From contig JAHREC010000062.1 of assembly GCA_020081605.1 (NCBI GenBank), positions 2,914,001 to 2,978,000 on the forward strand: a stretch of 64,000 bases of DNA, read 5' to 3'. This document shows positions 29,271-52,729 of the stretch, one piece after another. The stretch is from Albifimbria verrucaria (Eukaryota > Ascomycota > Sordariomycetes > Hypocreales > Stachybotryaceae). Below the pieces are notes generated by a model, which saw only the letters and a program-made list of their open reading frames with translations, was not told where the DNA came from and made no database searches. Positions within the stretch are counted from its first letter, which is position 1. The number at the start of each line of letters is the position of its first letter. Made by a program: the position numbers and the translations under genes.

Positions 29271-32200
29271 TCAACGCAGAGATATTATCCTCTCTGGTAG
29301 ACCCAGTTCCCCAGCTTCGCCCTTCATAAGCCCGTGAATATAGCACTCTCCTACGAGTAAATAGGAGCCTTCCAATGCCATGTCTCTTCTCAGAAGAAAC
29401 GGAACTACACCTCCATCAATGATAGAAACGATGTCTCCTTTGTCAGCCCCTGGAGGACGATACCGACAAACTGTCTTTTGGTAGTCACACATCTCCAACC
29501 TGTCAAGGATTCTTGGAGAGCAAGGTAATATTTCTGGCCTTGTTCCCAAAGAGAACCCTTCATATCATTGCTGTCCAAGTTCTCTTCACCCGAAACTCGT
29601 TGTGTTACTGTTTCCTTGCTGGTCGTGGTATTGGCACTCTTTGTGGCCAAGTACATACGCAAAGCTGTATAAGAATCCTTCATCTCAGCTTCTTCCTGCT
29701 GGCATCGTGGCGATCCAGCGATAGGGATTTTCCATTTAAGGTCTTCCCCGAGTTGGGAAGATGAGGAGCAAACCATGTTGTCGACTTCGCTCAAGTATGA
29801 GTCTAACTCTTCTGCCGTGTTTGACGACTTGCTGATTATCATTATCTCATCGACCTCTATGCCGTACAGGCGCAACTCTGAACTATTCTTTGTCGATGTA
29901 TCTTCAAACCGAGGCTGAGTATGCCTGGAGGCAGCGTAAGGTATCTTTGATAATGACAACATGCGCAAGCTATTCGGTTTCATAATTGTCCAATCTGGAA
30001 TCCAAGATGGCCAAGACTTTGTTCTGCGAGAGCCAACCCCGCCCTGTGAAGTAACTCTATGGCTTTCCCTTGGTGGATAAAGGCCCAGGCATAACTTGAC
30101 ACTACCACATCAAAGCTGAGATCGTAATCCAGAACGAACTCCGTGTTATTGCCATCAATAGCTAGTCCAAGAAGACAGAAAAACCGATCATGGTCGATTA
30201 AAGATTTGAAGTCCCGGAAATCCTCAAGCAGCTCGAGGAGGGGACGGCGATCGTGCCTAGCTTCTCTCTCACGTAGTTTGGCCAGAGTCGAGAATCGTCT
30301 CCATTTCTGCTGAGCCAATTCAAACGGCTGTTCCAGTAGATCCTGTGACTCGCGTGTAATGATGTCAATAGTGGTGAGAAGGTCATTCCAGTCTATCATC
30401 CACTTGCCACACACTACCCTGACGCTGGTAGCGACAACTACCTCTTGAATGATCCACGCTCTCTTAAACCATGGTCTTTCAAAGAGAGCACCTATCTCGA
30501 ACCAAATTGGATCATTTTGTGGTGGCATGTGACTCTTTTTCCAGCTTTTAGGGACCATTGGGAGATCTTTAGGCCATTCTTCTCCCACCATGGCTAGAAC
30601 GTCATGCACACGGATTTGCATCAACGTTTCCATGGCACGGTCGCCATTGCTGTCGCTTCCAAGACAGACTACCACACAGGTCGCGCGTTGAAAGACTTGT
30701 GGCAAAAGTCGAATCTGCTCAGCTTTTTCCTTATTGTCATTCTGGTTGATGCAAACCCCGTCAGCCCAAAAAACCATGGGTTGCTTCTCGTGTCTTAGAC
30801 ATCGCAGTGCAGCATCCAGAGAGGCTGTGATTTTGATGTCACCGTCAGGAGTCCACAATTTGTGCGATAACTCAGAGCTTCCCCATGCGTAAGAAATTGC
30901 TTGGAAGCTGTTTGCAAGAAGAAGAGGGAGCGATAAACAACAGCTTGTAATTGAGTCTCTCCACATCCAGGATGGAGCATGAGGAGTCGGATGTCGCCTT
31001 TGTTCAAGGTTTCATAAGAGAATTCTGAGCGAGTTTCAGCATTAATTGTTGCAATTGTAATTGATACGGGTTTGGTCGATAAGTTAGAACTGGGTTGAGC
31101 TGAATGCAGAGACATGTTGGAAAGATGCCCGTGAGCGTTTGCAAGATTGTGGCTAGCCGGGTATCCCGAATTTGACCATGAATGGCTATCAGTGTCCAGT
31201 CCACCGTGGGTCATGCCGAAATTATGTTGTAACGTTGCTGGGAGTTGATAGTTATTTGGCAAGTCGAGCTGGCTAGATATGTATGGTGGGAGATTTGATT
31301 GCACTGCATACAAGGCTTGCATTTGCTGATACATTAGGGCATCTTGCCAAGGATGGGTGAACTGGTGTGCTCCTTCATTGTTAAATGATTGGTTCTGACA
31401 ATTCCATGCTGATTGTAGTGGTGCATGGAAACCGAAATCCGAATGTTGAGGCAAGTGATGCCCTGCACTGCCTGGCGAGCTGATAGGTGTATTGTAGAAG
31501 TCTGCTGACGGCGAAGAGCTCGAAGCACCTGGAGAGTGACTAGAAATCTGAGGAACTGATAGCGATGGCGGTGACTGAGGTAGGCGTAATGTGTGATCCC
31601 TAGCAAAGCTTGAAGTTGAGTTTGCCGGTGCTCCATGACTGTCATGACTAGTATCTAGGATAGTAGCCGTGAATGTCCAATTATCTTGTAGCGAAAATCT
31701 CTCCGAGGTGAAAAGACGCCAGGGATCAACGAAGAAATCGAATCTAGGAGTAGTAAAAACGTCTGAGATGCGCACCAGGATGTGGATGTTCTCCTGCTTC
31801 CATTTCCCATCTTGCGGTTGATCTGTTCGGAACCTGCGCATCTGTACCAAAAGTTTCAAGAGGTTAACAATTGCTATGAATAATTCTATCAATCGTCCAT
31901 ATTGGCCACTTACTCTTAGAAATTGCTGGGTGGTCCAAGAGAAATCCGACTTTGCGCCTCCAGACGATACCGCAAGATCAAGGTGGTAAGTTGGATCGCT
32001 TGCTGTCCAGGCCCAGCCTTTTGCTTCCTCGAAGCCATTTTCGGCCAGGAAACCCGACAGCTTTCGGCTCGCTTCACGGCTGTGAACAGTGAAAGTAGCA
32101 TAGGATGCCATGGGCTCTGAGAATTTTGAGAAGCCGGCTTTGTAACGTTGAGGGCTGGTCCAATGTTCATCCGGTTTATAAGAATCGCCCAGTTCTCGCT

Positions 32201-35200
32201 GCAGAAACCTCGATGTCTATAAATATAATTCATCCCATCTCAATATTAATCTTGCTAACTATTGAGCTGCTGATTTGTAAGGACTTACCAGGACTTCTGC
32301 TATGTATTTCTCGTGGGCCGGCTCCATTCGCAGCACTGTTCGATAGTCTGATGCTGGGTCACCAGAACTATTTCGGAATAGAATTCTTTCTGACCACTTG
32401 AAATATTGCAATGGAAGTCTTCTATCTTCTTTCTCGAAACTGTCTTCGAGATTCCCCGGAATATGCTTAAATTTTGACTCGAGTTTGGCTGTAGGTGAAT
32501 CTTCGTCTTCATCCTCGTCGTCAGACGCTCTTGTATCCAAGAACTCATCACGCCAGAGCGCAGCAAGTCCAGTAACAGCACCTAGTACCTTTTGTGTTAT
32601 TTAATCAGATCAAATTAAAATTCAAATATGCTTCATACCGTTTGTGGAGGAGTCAAGGACATGGACTCCTTCCCTTACGAAGGCGCTCGATAGCCGGTCT
32701 CGGTTATGCTCGCACAATGCGAAGTGAACTAAATAGCGGTGAGACGAGTCAATGATCCCATAACGATCACATATTTCATTTGCGAGCTCTGGAGGAGGCA
32801 GAGGTTCCGAGATGTGATCTCTCGTTATGAATATTTGCAGTCTGCCGTTGGACTCTGAGACAGATACTCCGCCCTGAACGCCAGTGCCTGAAAAAGAGCG
32901 ACCGCCATATTTAAACGTATATTTCTGCAGGATCTCAGTAGCAGTGTATACTTCGACACGGAAGAGCTCTTTGACTAGAGCGTCTCGCTGCGGTCGCTGT
33001 TTTGGTATCAAGCTATTGAATTGCACATATTAGCATGAAGATCTCACAAGATAAAGACCAGAGATACGAATTATCCTCAATGTGTATTCGTGAGACGTAC
33101 GCGGTAATGAACTCTGCTTTCCGCCGCAAAGATACGGTATACGCTTTATGCACTTTCGGCTTTCCCAACACTTGTGATTCGAACTTCACAATTTTAGACA
33201 AATACCGCGACTCAAGGCCCAGGGCCTTCAGAAATGTCTCTATGGACTGAAGGTCTTGAGGCCAGAAGGCAAGTAGATTGACATGACCACAAAAGCTATC
33301 GCGTAAATGATGGCGATCGGCGATAAACCAGGGTGGGAACGCAGGATTGAGAGGTGCAAGTGAGTGATACTCTTTATCATCATACTCCGTTAGAATAGGA
33401 AAGACGGCGACCCATGTGTTCAACTTCGTAACGATGTCGCTGAAGTTTTCGGTACTCTGAGTTTGCATGGCCTGATCCATCTTGACAAATGACTTCAGAA
33501 TATCTGCGAGGCTTGCTTGATCTGAGATTGCGTTAAAAGCCTGAATCAAACGCTTTATATCGTCTGTTTTAAAACCGAGGACATTTCGAAACAACGTGGC
33601 ACTGCCCTGATACTCAGCAACAATATCCAAGTTCTTTTCTAGGCATTCTTTGGCGTCGATCCAGCGCATCTGCGGACCATCGTCATCGGACGACCCGAGA
33701 GACGTGTAAAGCAGGCGCTGATTCATAAATGCTTTCCTATGGTCGATTATGTTAGTTAGGATGAAGACCACCTTCAGGAAAGTTGCTAGTACCGTATCTC
33801 ATCTTTATTATCCAAAAATCAGCTTGGATTCGCTCATATATATAGGCAACAGTTGCCTTTGGTGGACTGATGATGGATTTCCTCAACTCCTGAAGGCATC
33901 GAAAATAGTAGTCTATGTTTCGATACACCGAGACTCCAAAAACTCAAGCACCTTCCACCCCTGATCCGAAGGATTAGGTATATCCAAGATCGGTAATTCA
34001 GGTACAGCATCCATAGTCCTGTCGAGCAGTGGAAGAAGTGTATCTCGCAGGCGGTGGAAGGATGGTGTCTTTGCACCTTTGCGTGGATAGCATTTGACTC
34101 GGACAGCCGCGATTTTCTCTTTCACTGGGTTCTCTATGTCTTTGTTCTTCACTAGACGTATGTCCAAGATATATCGCGAATATTTCTGCCAGTTTACTTT
34201 TAACAGTTCCAGAATATCAGACGAATCGCAAGCCTTGAGCAAAGAGTTGAATTCGTCAGAAAGATCGAAGGTATCTTCCTTTGACTTGCCAGGAGCTTTT
34301 GTGCAGATTCTGGGCAGATTCGACGGCTGGATACCGAAGCTTCGCTGCATCCACTTACGCCAGGTACGCCCTGCTGGCCCGTGAGATGGGAAAGCTTCTG
34401 CATATACATCATGGAGGAGATCGTAGTTGCGTTCTATATGCTCGCTAATTCGATCTTCAAAAGACCTAACTTTGACGGTGCTTTGCATATACAGCAACGA
34501 CCCTTTGACTCGCTTGTCATCTGCTGTGACAAACCAGAGATCTATGCCACGTGGGACTTCAAATGAGGCATTGAACATATATGTAACATGTTCCACAAGC
34601 TGGCTATGTTTCAACCGTGCCGGCTTGAATGAGCTCTTTTGGTGCATCCCAATGATGATACGGCACACTTCAGCAGCATCCGGACGTGGTTTAACGCCAA
34701 GCTGAACGAATAAGTTGCGCCTGAAGTGGTCCTTTTCGATGTTTCTATCAACAGTGTGTATAGGAACTGTCTCCGGGATACTAATGCCGGATGCTTGATT
34801 GAAATAGATAGGTCCCGCATTTGCGGACACCCACTCCCCGTTAGATAAAGGGATGATATTTAAATCTTTGATAATATCTGAATCGCCTTTTTCATTCCAT
34901 AGAGATAGTAGCGTCTGAGCAAGTTGGGAATGCCATTCAGGGTGCTTCCGACGAAAGCCTTGGCGGTCATTAGAGATCATCTGCTTCAAATCTCGAAGGA
35001 AGTCGTCAGCATCCATGGTTCGAACACCAATAATGGACAATAATGAAGACACCCAATCAGGGTACTTTGCCGAAAGATAAGAGTCCAAGGTGCTGGAGGA
35101 TAAAGTAAAAGGTACCCCATCATTTGAACAGTAGGTACGTGGGACACGGGTAAGGGTTGCAGGCGAAATCATTTTGCGAGAACATCCTTCCAGTATCCGC

Positions 35201-36484
35201 TCTCGAGGAAGTCTCTTCAAAATCAAGGCTCTAAGTGGCTCAAAGAATCCGCCTACACTTTGTGCTGGAATGAAGCGCGGCCAAGTGTATCGTTCAGGTC
35301 CAGAGTTCATTCTGTAGACTCCTTGACAAACGCATCAACACAAGAATCGCGAAGAGCATGATTCCAAGGGATATCCAGAACATCTTCTCTGTTTGCGGTA
35401 AGTAGAAAGTCTCCCTGGATCATAAACTATACTTTATTAGCTGTGCCGCATAAAGGCAAAGCCGATAGAACTTGGATAACTTGGAGATGACCTACCTTAA
35501 AGCCGTAGTTACGAATCGGGAGGTACGCGTAGACAGATTGTGTCACTCCCTCTCTGGTCCCTGTTGACTGAGGAAATGCAAGCAAAACCTCGGTTGCTTG
35601 TATCCCAAGCCTATCCTTCTCTACAGGTAATTGTGCTAGGAGGTGGTTGACCACAAGATAATCAGAAGAGGACGTCCCACCGTGTAATCTGGTAACAACA
35701 CTTCCACCAGCTAGCAGGTCTTCTCGCCAAAGTCTCCTAGTCTGTACTTGACCGTCATCAAGGATAAAATTGAGGTTGATTTGTCTCAGCTGCTTGAGAA
35801 ATATCAGCATCGTAAGGTCGAGATGCCGTATATCGTAGGCAAACTGGTCCTCATCGCAATCCTCGAATAATTGAAGATAGAAAGATGTGTATCCTGGCAG
35901 GGTTGGTTCAGGGAAGTCGGACCAGACAGGTGCTATGATACCGACCAGCTGCGACTGATCAAACTTGAAAGAGAAGTTTCCAGAGGAAATGTAAACCACA
36001 CTGGCTACCTTGAACACCGACTTGAAACCAATGCCTTTCTCACCGATGTACCGGGTAGACTGACCGAGGCCGACTTTGGTACTCTCGCCAATCTTGCAGA
36101 TTGCTCTGACGTTGCTCTCGGTAAACCCGATTTCATTGCAATCGACTCTCAGGCTCCCTCTTCTGTAAGTGAAGTCGAGGCTTGGAATTGCACAATCGTA
36201 CGTATTATCATCAGCATTCTGTATGAGCTCGAGGAGAAAATGAGTCTCTTTGTCATATAGTTGGCGAGACAAGCTGGATTCGTGCGTGATCAATAAGATG
36301 AGCGTGTAAAGGCGTGACGGGTACAAAAGAGATGGGGATGAACTTACACCATAAGAGCATTTGCCATCAATCGTCCCAAAGCTGAGTCTCCTTGTGTAAT
36401 GGTCCCATTCAACGTATTTTCCCTCCAGACTTCCTCCACAAGACGCCTTGCCTCGTCAGCATCAAGCTTGGGCAGGTAATTCAT
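29271..36484 (-). CDS. GHKL (Hsp90/sacsin-like) ATPase - NOV/DUF3883-like - HET domain fusion
   Basis: Eight exons on the minus strand: 36348-36484, 35496-36273, 33793-35426, 33101-33736, 32639-33012, 32289-32581, 31914-32216, 29271-31841; about 2240 residues. N-terminus (about 50-250): Bergerat ATPase fold with N-box HFLLELIQNADDNTY, G1 box DCNEIGF, and G2 box YIGEKGIGFKSVFKV, as in sacsin and plant NO VEIN. A long helical middle (PERYTWPRFIPAQS, WVSSLLSIIGVRTM) follows. Around 1310-1440 is a NOV/DUF3883-like domain (YHLDLAVSSGG, HILVRISDVF, FFVDPWRLF). A Ser/Pro/Gln/Asn-rich linker (about 1450-1650) leads to a HET domain: YETLNKGDIRLLML, FQAISYAWGS, FWADGVCINQND, RPWFKRAWIIQEVV, and the distal LVGECYIHGLM. 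Splice phases agree throughout. One-base losses near 35316, 33940, 33812, 30962, 29995 and 29465 interrupt the frame. HET domains trigger incompatibility cell death; a role of the ATPase as sensor or switch is inference. Confidence 0.8.
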
Positions 36485-48741: not shown

Positions 48742-51700
48742 ATGCCTCCGACATCACCATACAGACCGATCAGAGCCCCCGAGTCCCCGACGCATGATTC
48801 CGACTCTGATCTAGACATTGACGTTCAGGAGCTTGACCCTCTCTCGTCAGAGCGTGCCGCAGGTTCCGGACAAGATAGGCAAGCGGCGCAGAACTCGAAT
48901 CCCAGGATAGCACTGCGGAACCTGCGTATGGGCGGGCTACGGCGTACAGGCAAGCGAGGTCGCGACTTTGGGGATCTAGGGCAGGATAGGAATGCCTCCG
49001 ACGAACAGGCACTATTGGGCGACCGAGATAGCGGCAGCCATGGAGACGATGACCAACCACTATTGGGCGAGCAAGGAGCCGGCGCCGAGGTTCACTCGTC
49101 TCGAACTCCCTAAGCGCCATCCGACTCCCCAGTTTCATGTCCGGCTCCAAAAGACTGAGGAAGAAGATGGAGAGGAGCAAGAGGAGGATGACCCATCCTC
49201 CGCCAGGCTTGTGGCTGTCGGCTCCAATCAATCGACACGGTTTCCTTCCAACATGATATCCAACGCCAAGTATACGGCTCTTACGTTCCTCCCGATCACC
49301 TTGTACAACGAATTCTCCTTCTTCTTCAACATGTACTTTCTCCTTGTCGCTTTATCTCAAGCTATTCCAGCTTTGCGTATTGGTTATCTTGCTACTTATA
49401 TTGCTCCTTTGGCCTTTGTGCTATGCATCACTATGGGCAAGGAGGCATACGATGATATTGAAAGACGACGAAGAGATAATGAAGCGAATTCCGAGCTCTA
49501 CACTGTACTAGTGTTTTCTGATACATCGAGGAACTCAATTTCCAGCAACCGACACCGAAGATTGAGATCAGACATGAGCGGAAAGGGAAAGAGGACATCA
49601 AGAGGCAACCGACATGATCTTGGCGACATACGAGAAGAAGAGGAGGAGGAACATTTCTCAGATCCCTCTTCCCAGGTTGAGGAGATTTACCGCAAATCTC
49701 GGGATCTCAAGGTTGGCGACGTATTGAAATTGAGCAAAGGGCAACGTGTTCCTGCAGATGTTGTCATTCTTCAGTGCGCCTCTACTGAGGGCTCTGCGCC
49801 AGCCGCTGGTGAAGAAGCAGCAGCTGAAGAGGAGCTGCTTGACTTCGTTGAGGAAGAAACATCCACAGCGAAGGGCAAGGAACCAGAAGTTGACTCAAGG
49901 ATTGAAGAGTCGGGTGGCGGTTCTACGGGCGAGACTTTCATCCGGACGGATCAACTTGATGGTGAAACTGATTGGAAGTTGAGACTTGCATCTCCTCTAA
50001 CACAAAATCTACCAATTGAAGAGCTTATTCGCCTCCGAATAACAGGAGGCAAGCCTGATAAGAAAGTCAACGAGTTCATGGGCAAGGTGGAGCTTCTTCC
50101 GACGCGGCAAGATGCCATCAGCCATCAACCCTCCGAAGACTTCAACGAGCACAGCACCAAATCAGCGGCGCTCTCTATCGATAACACAGCCTGGGCTAAC
50201 ACTGTGATCGCGTCTCAGGCAACGACATTTGCAGTTATCATGTATACGGGTCCTCAGACCAGGTCAGCTTTGTCAACAGCCCCATCGCGATCCAAGACAG
50301 GCTTGCTTGAGTACGAGATCAACTCACTCACAAAAATCCTATGCGCCCTGACCTTGGGCCTATCCATACTCCTTGTCGCCTTGGAAGGTTTTGAGAGCAG
50401 TGAGGGCAATACCTGGTACATCAAGATCATGCGGTTTCTTGTCCTGTTCTCCACGATTGTACCCATCAGCTTACGAGTCAACCTTGACCTGGGCAAAGTG
50501 CTTTCTCCCGGTTTATCCACCGGGATCCCGATATTCCTGGGGCTGTTGTCCGTACCAGCACAATTCCGGAGGATCTGGGACGTATCGAATATTTGCTCAG
50601 TGACAAAACAGGAACACTGACGCAGAACGATATGGAGATGAAAAAGATTCACGTGGGCACTGTTTCCTATGCCAACGAGGCAATGGACGAAGTGGCTGCG
50701 TACGTGCGGCAAGGATTCTTTGTTCAGCCGACGGTAGACCCAATGTCACGGAAGATCCTGATCACCCTTCGTCAACATACTCTGCTCCTGCAAACGCCGG
50801 TGCGACCCGTACACGACGAGAGATTGGCTCGCGTGTCCGTGACGTTGTCCTCGCCCTCGCGCTCTGCCACAATGTCACACCCACTGTGGATGTTGAGGAT
50901 GGTAAAGAAGTGACCTCATACCAAGCTTCATCGCCAGACGAGATTGCGATTGTCAAGTGGACCGAATCAGTTGGTCTAAGGCTAGCTTACCGCGACCGCA
51001 AAAGTATGGTGCTTGAATCCAGAGATAGTGGACGGCCAATCGTGCGAGTTCGCATCCTCGATGTGTTCCCCTTCACTTCTGAAGGCAAGCGAATGGGTAT
51101 CATTGTTCATTTCCACGACAACCTAGATAACCACAAGCCGAGCATTACTGATGGAGAGATTTGGTTCTACCAAAAGGGAGCGGACACTGTCATGGGCTCG
51201 ATTGTTGCGGCAAACGACTGGCTGGACGAAGAGACAGCAAACATGGCTCGCGAAGGTTTGCGAACTTTGGTCGTTGGCCGCAAGAAGCTCTCATACCAAC
51301 AATACCAAGAATTTTCATCAAAATACCAGGAGGCTTCATTGGCAATTACAGGACGAGATGCCGGTATGCAGCGGGTCATGTCGCAATATCTGGAGAATGA
51401 TCTTGAGCTTTTGGGAGTTACTGGTGTTGAAGACAGGCTGCAGAGAGATGTGAAGCCCTCCCTGGAGCTGCTGCGCAATGCAGGCATCAAGATTTGGATG
51501 TTGACTGGTGACAAAGTGGAAACAGCCAGATGTGTTGCCATTAGCTCGAAGCTAGTGGCTCGTGGGCAGTATATCTACACGGTTGCGAAACTGAAGAAGA
51601 AAGACGGCGCGCAGGATCATCTGGACTTCTTACGTAGCAAGACAGATGCTTGCTTACTGATTGACGGCGAGAGTCTTGCCTTGTTCCTGACTCACTTCCG

Positions 51701-52729
51701 CATCGAATTCATCTCCGTCGCTGTTCAGCTTCCCACGGTCGTTGCTTGCCGCTGCTCTCCTAACCAAAAGGCAGAGGTGGCAAAGCTCATCAAGGAGTAC
51801 ACCAAGAAGCGTGTGTGCTGTATTGGCGATGGTGGCAACGACGTCTCTATGATTCAAGCCGCCGATGTGGGAGTTGGTATTGTGGGCAAGGAGGGTCGCC
51901 AAGCCAGTCTGGCAGCCGACTTTTCGATTGAGCAGTTCTGCCATCTCGTTAAGCTACTGGTGTGGCATGGCCGCAACAGCTATAAGCGCAGTGCCAAGCT
52001 CGCGCAATTCGTTATTCATCGTGGTTTGATTATCGCCGTGTGCCAAACCATGTTCAGTATTGCTCGAAAATTCGAGCCGGATGGTTTGTACAAGGTACGT
52101 AATCCTTATCCAGAGTATATTCACATTGCTAACTATAGACAGGACTGGCTGCTTGTGGGCTATGCTACCTGTTACACTGCTGCCCCTGTTCTATCTCTTG
52201 TACTTGACAAAGATGTCGACGAGCACCTCGTCAATCTTTACCCCGAACTCTACAAAGAGCTCACTTCAGGTCGTTCTCTCTCATACCGCACCTTCTTCGT
52301 CTGGGTGCTTGTATCTATCTACCAAGGCAGCATGATCCAGGGTTTGTCCCAGGTCCTGACTGAGGTCAGCGGCAACAAAATGGTTGCCGTCAGCTATACT
52401 TCTCTCATTCTTAACGAGCTGCTCATGGTTGCCATTGAGATTACGACATGGCACCCAGTTATGATAGTGAGCATCATTGGCACGTTTATGTTGTACGTGG
52501 GGTCAATGCCGTTCCTCGGCAACTATTACGATTTGGAGTTTCTTGTTACATGGTATGTTGAATATCTGAAATCAAAACACCCTTGTTACGTTTGACTAAC
52601 ACGATGTACAGGGGCTTTGTGTGGCGCGTGTGCGCTATCTTAGCCATCTCGCTCATCCCGCCGTATGCGGGTAAGCTGATTAGGAGGACGATGAAGCCGC
52701 CGTCTTATAGAAAGGTCCAGAGCACGTGA
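48742..52729 (+). CDS. neo1: P4-type ATPase, Neo1 family (phospholipid flippase)
   Basis: Exons 48742-52094, 52143-52552, 52612-52729; about 1290 residues. Translocates aminophospholipids in Golgi/endosome membranes. An acidic, disordered N-terminus leads to TM1-2 (FLPITLYNEFSFFFNMYFLL). The actuator region is interrupted by an acidic insert (DIREEEEEEHF). PISLRVNLDLGK marks the P4 PISL motif in TM4. The phosphorylation site is SDKTGTLTQND, followed by the Neo1-typical NVTPTV and YQASSPDEIAIVKW, then MLTGDKVETA and GDGGNDVSMIQAADVGVG. The C-terminal exon supplies the last TM (CAILAISLIPPYAG). Breaks: a disturbance near 49080-49110 (two losses or one gain), one C lost near 50508-50512 just before the phosphorylation site, and one base near 50720. 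The 48-bp intron at 52095-52142 is in frame. Confidence 0.93.

What the first reader, a model, noticed from the sequence alone, without database searches (positions are those of the whole stretch)
29271..36484. A GHKL-ATPase / NOV / HET giant: an Hsp90-type switch fused to a fungal cell-death domain
Seen: Bergerat ATPase boxes (LIQNADD; DCNEIGF; GEKGIGFKS) at the N-terminus, a DUF3883/NOV-like domain, and a canonical HET domain at the C-terminus in one collinear eight-exon gene with consistent splice phases. Known: HET domains execute vegetative incompatibility and usually sit at the N-terminus, alone or on NACHT/NB-ARC receptors; NOV/sacsin ATPases are a separate family, and DUF3883 also occurs in bacterial defence loci. 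I do not know a characterised fungal receptor with this layout. Inference: the GHKL ATPase could replace the NLR-type ATPase as a conformational switch that licenses the HET effector, giving a non-NLR allorecognition or antiviral/antibacterial sensor.
Basis: partly seen in the sequence, partly recalled or inferred. Interest (0 to 1): 0.88.

Follow-up and report, generated by a model that had tools for sequence, protein, structure and literature searches.

The report
Fungal Tiamat/NO-VEIN ATPase carrying HET effector
A fungal gene joins an ATPase chassis shared with a bacterial anti-phage protein family to a fungal cell-death domain, and the nuclease that ends this chassis in its fungal relatives has lost its catalytic residues, which suggests that evolution swapped one weapon for another on the same sensor.

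Summary
The architecture is real. On the minus strand, 36484-29271 encodes a sacsin-type GHKL ATPase, a middle region, a degenerate NO-VEIN C-terminal (NOV_C/DUF3883) domain, a linker, a HET domain and a conserved tail, collinear with a 2237-aa Fusarium protein. I counted 112 HET-bearing proteins of this kind, window included. This copy has six frame breaks; essential chaperone genes of the same assembly show such breaks too (10 in 24.4 kb), so assembly error is likelier than decay.

The new point is the effector. Fungal relatives without HET keep a nuclease-like motif (D...ExK...Q) in NOV_C: 105 of 112 exact. HET-bearing proteins keep its Asp in 0 of 108 and (D/E)xK in 0 of 108, while most ATPase and HET motif positions stay nearly invariant. 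The ATPase half matches the anti-phage family TmtA (window piece 205.9 bits); 15 of 31 prokaryotic relatives opened end in NOV_C with ExK. Best reading: a Tiamat-like, ATP-gated sensor whose nuclease was replaced by a TIR-like HET effector. ATP gating, cell death and trigger are inferred.

The parts
36348..36484 (-). exon 1 (start codon at 36484)
   Evidence: open frame, donor after 36348; aligned to P0002 residues 1-44
35496..36273 (-). exon 2: sacsin/NOV-type GHKL ATPase (N box, NE box, GEKGIGFKS box)
   Evidence: Pfam SACS 37.4 bits; PADLOC TmtA 205.9 bits on the 340-residue piece of exons 1-3; motif conservation
33793..35426 (-). exon 3: end of GHKL module and middle region; holds frame breaks near 35.34, 33.94 and 33.82 kb
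   Evidence: tblastn with homologues; weak TmtA match of the 459-residue middle piece, 24.1 bits
33101..33736 (-). exon 4, middle region
   Evidence: homologue alignment, frame after intron 33737-33792
32639..33012 (-). exon 5, middle region
32289..32581 (-). exon 6, acidic stretch and start of NOV_C-like domain
31914..32216 (-). exon 7, NOV_C-like domain
31650..32341 (-). degenerate NOV_C/DUF3883 restriction-endonuclease-like domain (across exons 6-8, introns included); catalytic Asp and (D/E)xK absent
31060..31649 (-). low-complexity linker, rich in Ser in this copy; length varies 37-244 residues among 25 proteins
29271..31841 (-). exon 8: end of NOV_C-like domain, linker, HET domain, conserved C-terminal region, stop; holds frame breaks near 30.92, 30.04 and 29.46 kb
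30442..30906 (-). HET domain, Pfam match over all 146 profile positions
   Evidence: 97.4 bits, cut-off 22.5; whole-genome hit G000:C41:2944442-2944906
29271..30441 (-). C-terminal region after HET; many homologues carry the label PF26639
   Evidence: precomputed Pfam labels of homologues; collinear tblastn; conserved LVGECYIHG motif

Best explanation
The gene belongs to a fungal family of single-chain, ATP-gated immune-type proteins built on the Tiamat/NO-VEIN chassis. The N-terminal GHKL (Hsp90/sacsin-type) ATPase with its middle region senses or is triggered by an unknown cue, probably through ATP-dependent N-terminal dimerisation as in other GHKL proteins. In the ancestor the output was a C-terminal restriction-endonuclease-like nuclease (NOV_C/DUF3883), which HET-less fungal NOV proteins and about half of the prokaryotic relatives opened still have. 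In this family the nuclease lost its catalytic residues and a HET domain, a TIR-like cell-death domain, was added behind a flexible linker as the new effector, so activation would end in death or arrest of the hyphal compartment instead of nucleic-acid cleavage. Shown: architecture, one clade, nuclease motif loss, conserved ATPase and HET motifs, homology to TmtA. Inferred: ATP switching, nuclease activity of the ancestor, HET output, trigger, defence role.
For: Full-length collinear homologues. 112 HET-bearing proteins incl. the window; with 14 HET-less ones they form one clade of 126, separate from 41 HET-less fungal NOV proteins and 3 outgroups, SH-like support 1.0. In a smaller sample 24 fused HETs, window included, form one group among HETs, support 0.81. 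Nuclease motif: HET-less NOV 105 of 112 exact E-D-E-K-Q, Asp 111 of 112, Lys 111 of 112 with one gap; HET-bearing Asp 0 of 108, (D/E)xK 0 of 108. The same genome's two HET-less paralogues keep ExK. In HET-bearing proteins the GHKL N-box Glu is kept in 107 of 108 and Asn in 108 of 108 rows with a letter; HET Trp, Asp, Cys, Gln, Glu are invariant in the rows with a letter (110-112 of 112). TmtA matches: window piece 205.9 bits, P0002 254 bits over residues 37-571. Six prokaryotic relatives, chosen from the 13 of 31 with an ExK-like string, score 762-1058 bits to TmtA profiles and carry NOV_C above Pfam's cut-off; a profile from these six finds a C-terminal NOV_C in 15 of 31. DUF3883 is called 'a novel REase domain' in PMC3710099 (passage); HET is related to TIR and induces cell death (passages of PMC4986451 and PMC12881547).
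Confidence: 0.62

Rival explanations
1. The window copy is a decayed pseudogene: the family is real, but this gene no longer makes a working protein.
For: Six frame breaks in about 6.7 kb of coding sequence, about twice the density of unambiguous breaks counted in chaperone genes (10 in 24.4 kb, a lower bound).
Against: Breaks of the same kind sit in HSP70 and CCT genes of the same assembly, 9 of 10 in the same direction, three in a single CCT gene; apart from the breaks the pieces hold no in-frame stop over some 2,230 codons; 58% identity to a Monosporascus protein over 80% of the query.
Confidence: 0.2
2. A sacsin-like chaperone or proteostasis protein: the GHKL part handles misfolded or complexed proteins and the HET domain is a regulated accessory, with no defence role.
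For: Sacsin is reported as a chaperone with a C-terminal HEPN domain (PMC3710099, passage); NCBIfam labels the N-terminus of homologue P0002 sacsin-like, 62.8 bits.
Against: The chassis matches the anti-phage family TmtA; HET domains are reported to induce cell death when overexpressed (passage of PMC12881547); the change of C-terminal enzyme-like domain looks like effector exchange.
Confidence: 0.2
3. Two neighbouring genes, an NOV gene and a HET gene, misread as one.
For: In the same genome a HET gene lies next to another NOV gene, on the opposite strand (L048).
Against: One open frame spans NOV tail, linker and HET start; more than 100 separate protein models have both parts; both halves group together in trees.
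Confidence: 0.03

Closest known systems
TmtA of the bacterial Tiamat anti-phage system (PADLOC family TmtA; system name and phage protection recalled, no paper on it could be opened)
   Same: N-terminal sacsin-type GHKL ATPase and adjoining region align over about 530 residues in homologue P0002; 15 of 31 prokaryotic relatives opened end in NOV_C
   Different: NOV_C is catalytically degenerate here and a linker, HET domain and C-terminal region follow; fungal
Fungal NO-VEIN-like proteins without HET (mostly about 1,600-1,750 aa, PF25794 + PF27504; e.g. P0026, P0034)
   Same: Same chassis through NOV_C
   Different: They keep D...ExK...Q in 105 of 112 and none of the 120 listed has HET
HET-domain NLRs of Podospora (HET-E, HET-D, HET-R)
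   Same: HET effector on a large ATPase protein
   Different: Those have an N-terminal HET, a NACHT domain and WD40 repeats (PMC4986451 passages); here the HET is C-terminal and the ATPase is GHKL
Sacsin (animal and slime mould; GHKL repeats, DnaJ, C-terminal HEPN; some with DEATH domains)
   Same: Sacsin-type ATPase with a toxin-related C-terminal domain
   Different: HEPN or DEATH instead of HET; three GHKL modules (PMC3710099 passages)

Membership tests
Sacsin/NOV-type GHKL ATPase | SACS domain above Pfam cut-off | tested here: met
   37.4 bits, cut-off 32.8
Sacsin/NOV-type GHKL ATPase | Bergerat N box E..N, NE-G, GxxGxG boxes | tested here: met
   present in the window; these positions kept in 107-110 of 108-110 HET-bearing rows with letters; the Asp before NE is less constant, 79 of 109
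Sacsin/NOV-type GHKL ATPase | ATP hydrolysis | not testable with these tools
   no assay
Tiamat TmtA | Sequence homology of ATPase half | tested here: met
   window piece 205.9 bits, E 2.7e-61
Tiamat TmtA | full-length match to a TmtA profile, C-terminal half included | tested here: not met
   P0002 matches profile positions 23-575 of 1302 at best; the window's middle piece 24.1 bits, HET piece none; the window's NOV_C piece was not scanned. A homologue, not filed as a member
Tiamat TmtA | intact C-terminal NOV_C nuclease motif | tested here: inconclusive
   absent here, but only 15 of 31 prokaryotic relatives opened have it, so it may not define the family
Tiamat TmtA | anti-phage or antiviral protection | not testable with these tools
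   needs infection assays
NOV_C/DUF3883 nuclease | Pfam NOV_C match | tested here: not met
   no hit at E up to 1 on the window piece
NOV_C/DUF3883 nuclease | catalytic Asp and ExK | tested here: not met
   absent in the window row and in 108 of 108 HET-bearing tails
NOV_C/DUF3883 nuclease | homology of the domain | tested here: met
   profile-profile of homologue tails 96.6%, E 5.6e-10 to fungal NOV tails
HET domain proteins | Pfam HET above cut-off over the whole profile | tested here: met
   97.4 bits, cut-off 22.5, positions 1-146 of 146
HET domain proteins | cell-death induction | not testable with these tools
   needs expression assay
Fungal NLR (STAND) | NACHT or NB-ARC domain | tested here: not met
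   none among Pfam hits of six window pieces or of P0002
Fungal NLR (STAND) | WD40, ANK or TPR repeats | tested here: not met
   none in the same scans

The most novel reading that the evidence does not exclude
Fungal NOV proteins are a eukaryotic branch of the bacterial Tiamat anti-phage family that still defends against nucleic-acid parasites such as mycoviruses or transposons. The HET-bearing branch, of which the window gene is a member, is a re-armed form in which a nuclease output was exchanged for TIR-like suicide signalling: a non-NLR class of fungal immune receptors of bacterial descent.
Probability: 0.35. Interest if true: 0.88.

Novelty: new variant of a known kind. Interest (0 to 1): 0.72.

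Why it matters
[quoted passage not shown] This gives a large, old set of HET proteins a defined ATPase chassis, a bacterial immune relative and a clear prediction: ATP-dependent switch, dead nuclease, live HET. It links fungal regulated cell death to bacterial phage defence by a route other than NLRs, and the paired families with and without HET, present in one genome, allow effector exchange to be tested directly. That many prokaryotic relatives lack NOV_C hints that this chassis changes its output more than once.

Tried and rejected
Led nowhere or rejected: searches for the combination in print. Searches found no paper; some searches gave listings with no title or abstract start on this layout. 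DUF3883 alone gave 7 papers, of which I opened one. I saw passages of PMC10197012, PMC3710099, PMC8195603, PMC4986451, PMC12881547 and PMC9815663, never a whole text; the library is open-licence PubMed Central only. Sequence searches of the Protein Data Bank with the NOV tail profile and the GHKL piece gave nothing. The HET gene next to the C16 NOV gene was tested as a split version of this gene: it groups with no fused HET in particular, so adjacency may be chance. A support of 0.182 for the HET clade and the supports printed after re-rooting came from values misplaced by re-rooting; read on the unrooted tree the value is 1.0. Minus-strand loci were first read on the wrong strand and redone.

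Rows dropped: P0030 (HET with ankyrins, not NOV) before the counts; P0007, too short a HET hit, from the HET tree. P0023 sits in the clade without HET and without a detectable NOV tail; its model also carries RTA1, so it may be a faulty gene model and is counted as HET-less. Tails not found in 18 of 249 sequences (4 HET-bearing, 14 HET-less, three of these outgroups) were left out of motif counts. The NOV-only part of the trees holds every third listed protein. The chaperone count used 21 of 22 HSP70 matches (one nested match left out) and 22 of 24 CCT matches (two that stand alone left out).

Full report
WHAT WAS CHECKED. On the minus strand I rebuilt the gene from 36484 to 29271: eight exons with introns 36347-36274, 35495-35427, 33792-33737, 33100-33013, 32638-32582, 32288-32217 and 31913-31842. 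The GHKL boxes are there as written. Pfam finds SACS on the N-terminal piece and HET on the C-terminal piece, both over cut-off; NOV_C is not found. One open frame joins NOV tail, linker and the start of HET.

FRAME BREAKS. Inside exons 3 and 8 the frame steps six times. Two of the steps sit beside homopolymer runs. The five whose direction was computed step the same way, as a missing base would make it. As a control I searched the same assembly for HSP70 and CCT chaperonins, which a living fungus should have intact. Counting only neighbouring matches whose DNA ranges touch or overlap, so that no intron can lie between them, I found 10 breaks in 24.4 kb of matched sequence, 9 of the 10 in the same direction (43 of 46 matches entered). 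One CCT gene alone has three. I therefore take the six breaks as assembly errors in the main. The density here is about twice that of the control, and true decay of this copy is not excluded.

RELATIVES. A search with the joined protein (X at each break) found 30 proteins; 24 of them carry HET together with PF25794, PF27504 or both. The Fusarium vanettenii protein of 2237 aa aligns from its first to its last residue with 36484-29274. A profile search found 1664 proteins at E below 1e-30, of which 120 were listed. Taking all listed proteins of the three searches except P0030, together with the window, 112 carry HET by a profile of 30 HET domains of this genome. They come from Sordariomycetes, Leotiomycetes, Dothideomycetes, Eurotiomycetes and Orbiliomycetes (classes assigned from memory of the genus names). 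A search with P0026, an NOV protein without HET, gave 218 proteins at E below 1e-8, 120 listed; none of the 120 bears the HET accession. On a tree of the ATPase and middle region alone (170 sequences, NOV tail left out), the HET-bearing proteins and 14 HET-less ones form one clade against 41 NOV-only proteins and three outgroups, SH-like support 1.0. Eight of the 14 are a nested clade of about 1,480-1,520 aa, mostly from Fonsecaea, Cladophialophora and similar genera, which suggests later loss of HET. In a tree with 30 HET domains of this genome, a HET protein with ankyrins and the C16 neighbour, 24 fused HETs (window included) group together (0.81).

BACTERIAL PARENTAGE. Against PADLOC, the Fusarium homologue matches TmtA at 254 bits over residues 37-571, a HET-less NOV protein at 272 bits; three further HET-bearing proteins and a limpet NOV protein also match. 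The window's own first 340 residues reach 205.9 bits; its middle piece gives 24.1 bits and its HET piece none. I opened 31. Thirteen showed an ExK-like string near the C-terminus. Six of those were scanned: all are TmtA (762-1058 bits) and all carry NOV_C over the cut-off, with GxD and ExK. A profile built from those six finds a C-terminal NOV_C in 15 of the 31, the six included. Six without the string had no NOV_C by Pfam, and one of them a weak HNH_2 match near its end, 17.9 bits, below the cut-off of 21. So the chassis is shared, and its C-terminal output seems to differ already among prokaryotes. That TmtA is the single protein of the Tiamat anti-phage system is recalled; the paper is not in the library.

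HOW IT PROBABLY WORKS. GHKL proteins close on ATP and dimerise through their N-terminal domain (general knowledge of the superfamily). I infer that a cue acting on the middle region shifts this cycle and brings C-terminal domains together. In fungal NOV and many TmtA relatives the C-terminal domain would be a nuclease; here it is HET, a relative of TIR (PMC4986451, passages) with a shared functional glutamate (PMC9815663, passage). TIR domains act in oligomers (recalled). The variable linker, 37-244 residues in 25 proteins, suits a tethered effector. Which cue is sensed is unknown; only a minority of HET genes act in allorecognition (PMC10197012 and PMC12881547, passages).

STANDING. The protein is a homologue of TmtA but matches its profiles only over the ATPase half, so I do not call it a Tiamat member; it is a HET protein and a sacsin/NOV-type ATPase by the tests made. 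It is not an NLR. None of the listings or passages that I saw (and the passages named above) describes the layout, within an open-licence library. Its existence in databases is plain (automatic names such as 'Heterokaryon incompatibility domain-containing'), so I rate it a new variant of a known kind, of clear interest.

Noticed in passing
L048 8854..6900 (minus strand), beside the HET-less NOV gene at L048 1315-6725 (plus): A HET gene lies convergent to a HET-less NOV gene whose ExK motif is intact, with their ends close together. Its HET is not especially close to the fused ones, but the pairing may be functional.
   Followed up: partly
whole assembly G000, e.g. C8:4817798-4819084: Single-step frame breaks in chaperone genes suggest an insufficiently polished assembly; gene models from it need care.
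   Followed up: yes
window 48980-52592 plus strand: A phospholipid-flippase gene is split over two overlapping open frames (48980-50617 and 50604-52592), perhaps another break or an intron.
   Followed up: no
clade P0237, P0239, P0240, P0242, P0243, P0244, P0246, P0248: Eight HET-less proteins nested in the HET-bearing clade, with a half-kept nuclease motif (DxK or DxR, no Asp at the first site), point to loss of HET after the fusion.
   Followed up: partly
L053, SACS hit at G000:C41:2707081-2707503: A fourth sacsin-like gene, apparently of another subfamily, lies about 240 kb away on the same contig; none of the 149 proteins then in hand gave a listed match to it.
   Followed up: partly
L072 4959-9593: A TmtA-like relative in a Methanophagales genome lacks NOV_C and has a sub-threshold HNH_2 endonuclease match near its C-terminus, perhaps another effector on the same chassis.
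   Followed up: no
G000: 150 HET-domain matches scored in one genome, a lower bound.
   Followed up: no
P0027 (limpet Patella vulgata): An animal NOV-like protein aligns with a bacterial TmtA profile over 6-1620 of 1655 positions, so the Tiamat link is not restricted to fungi.
   Followed up: no
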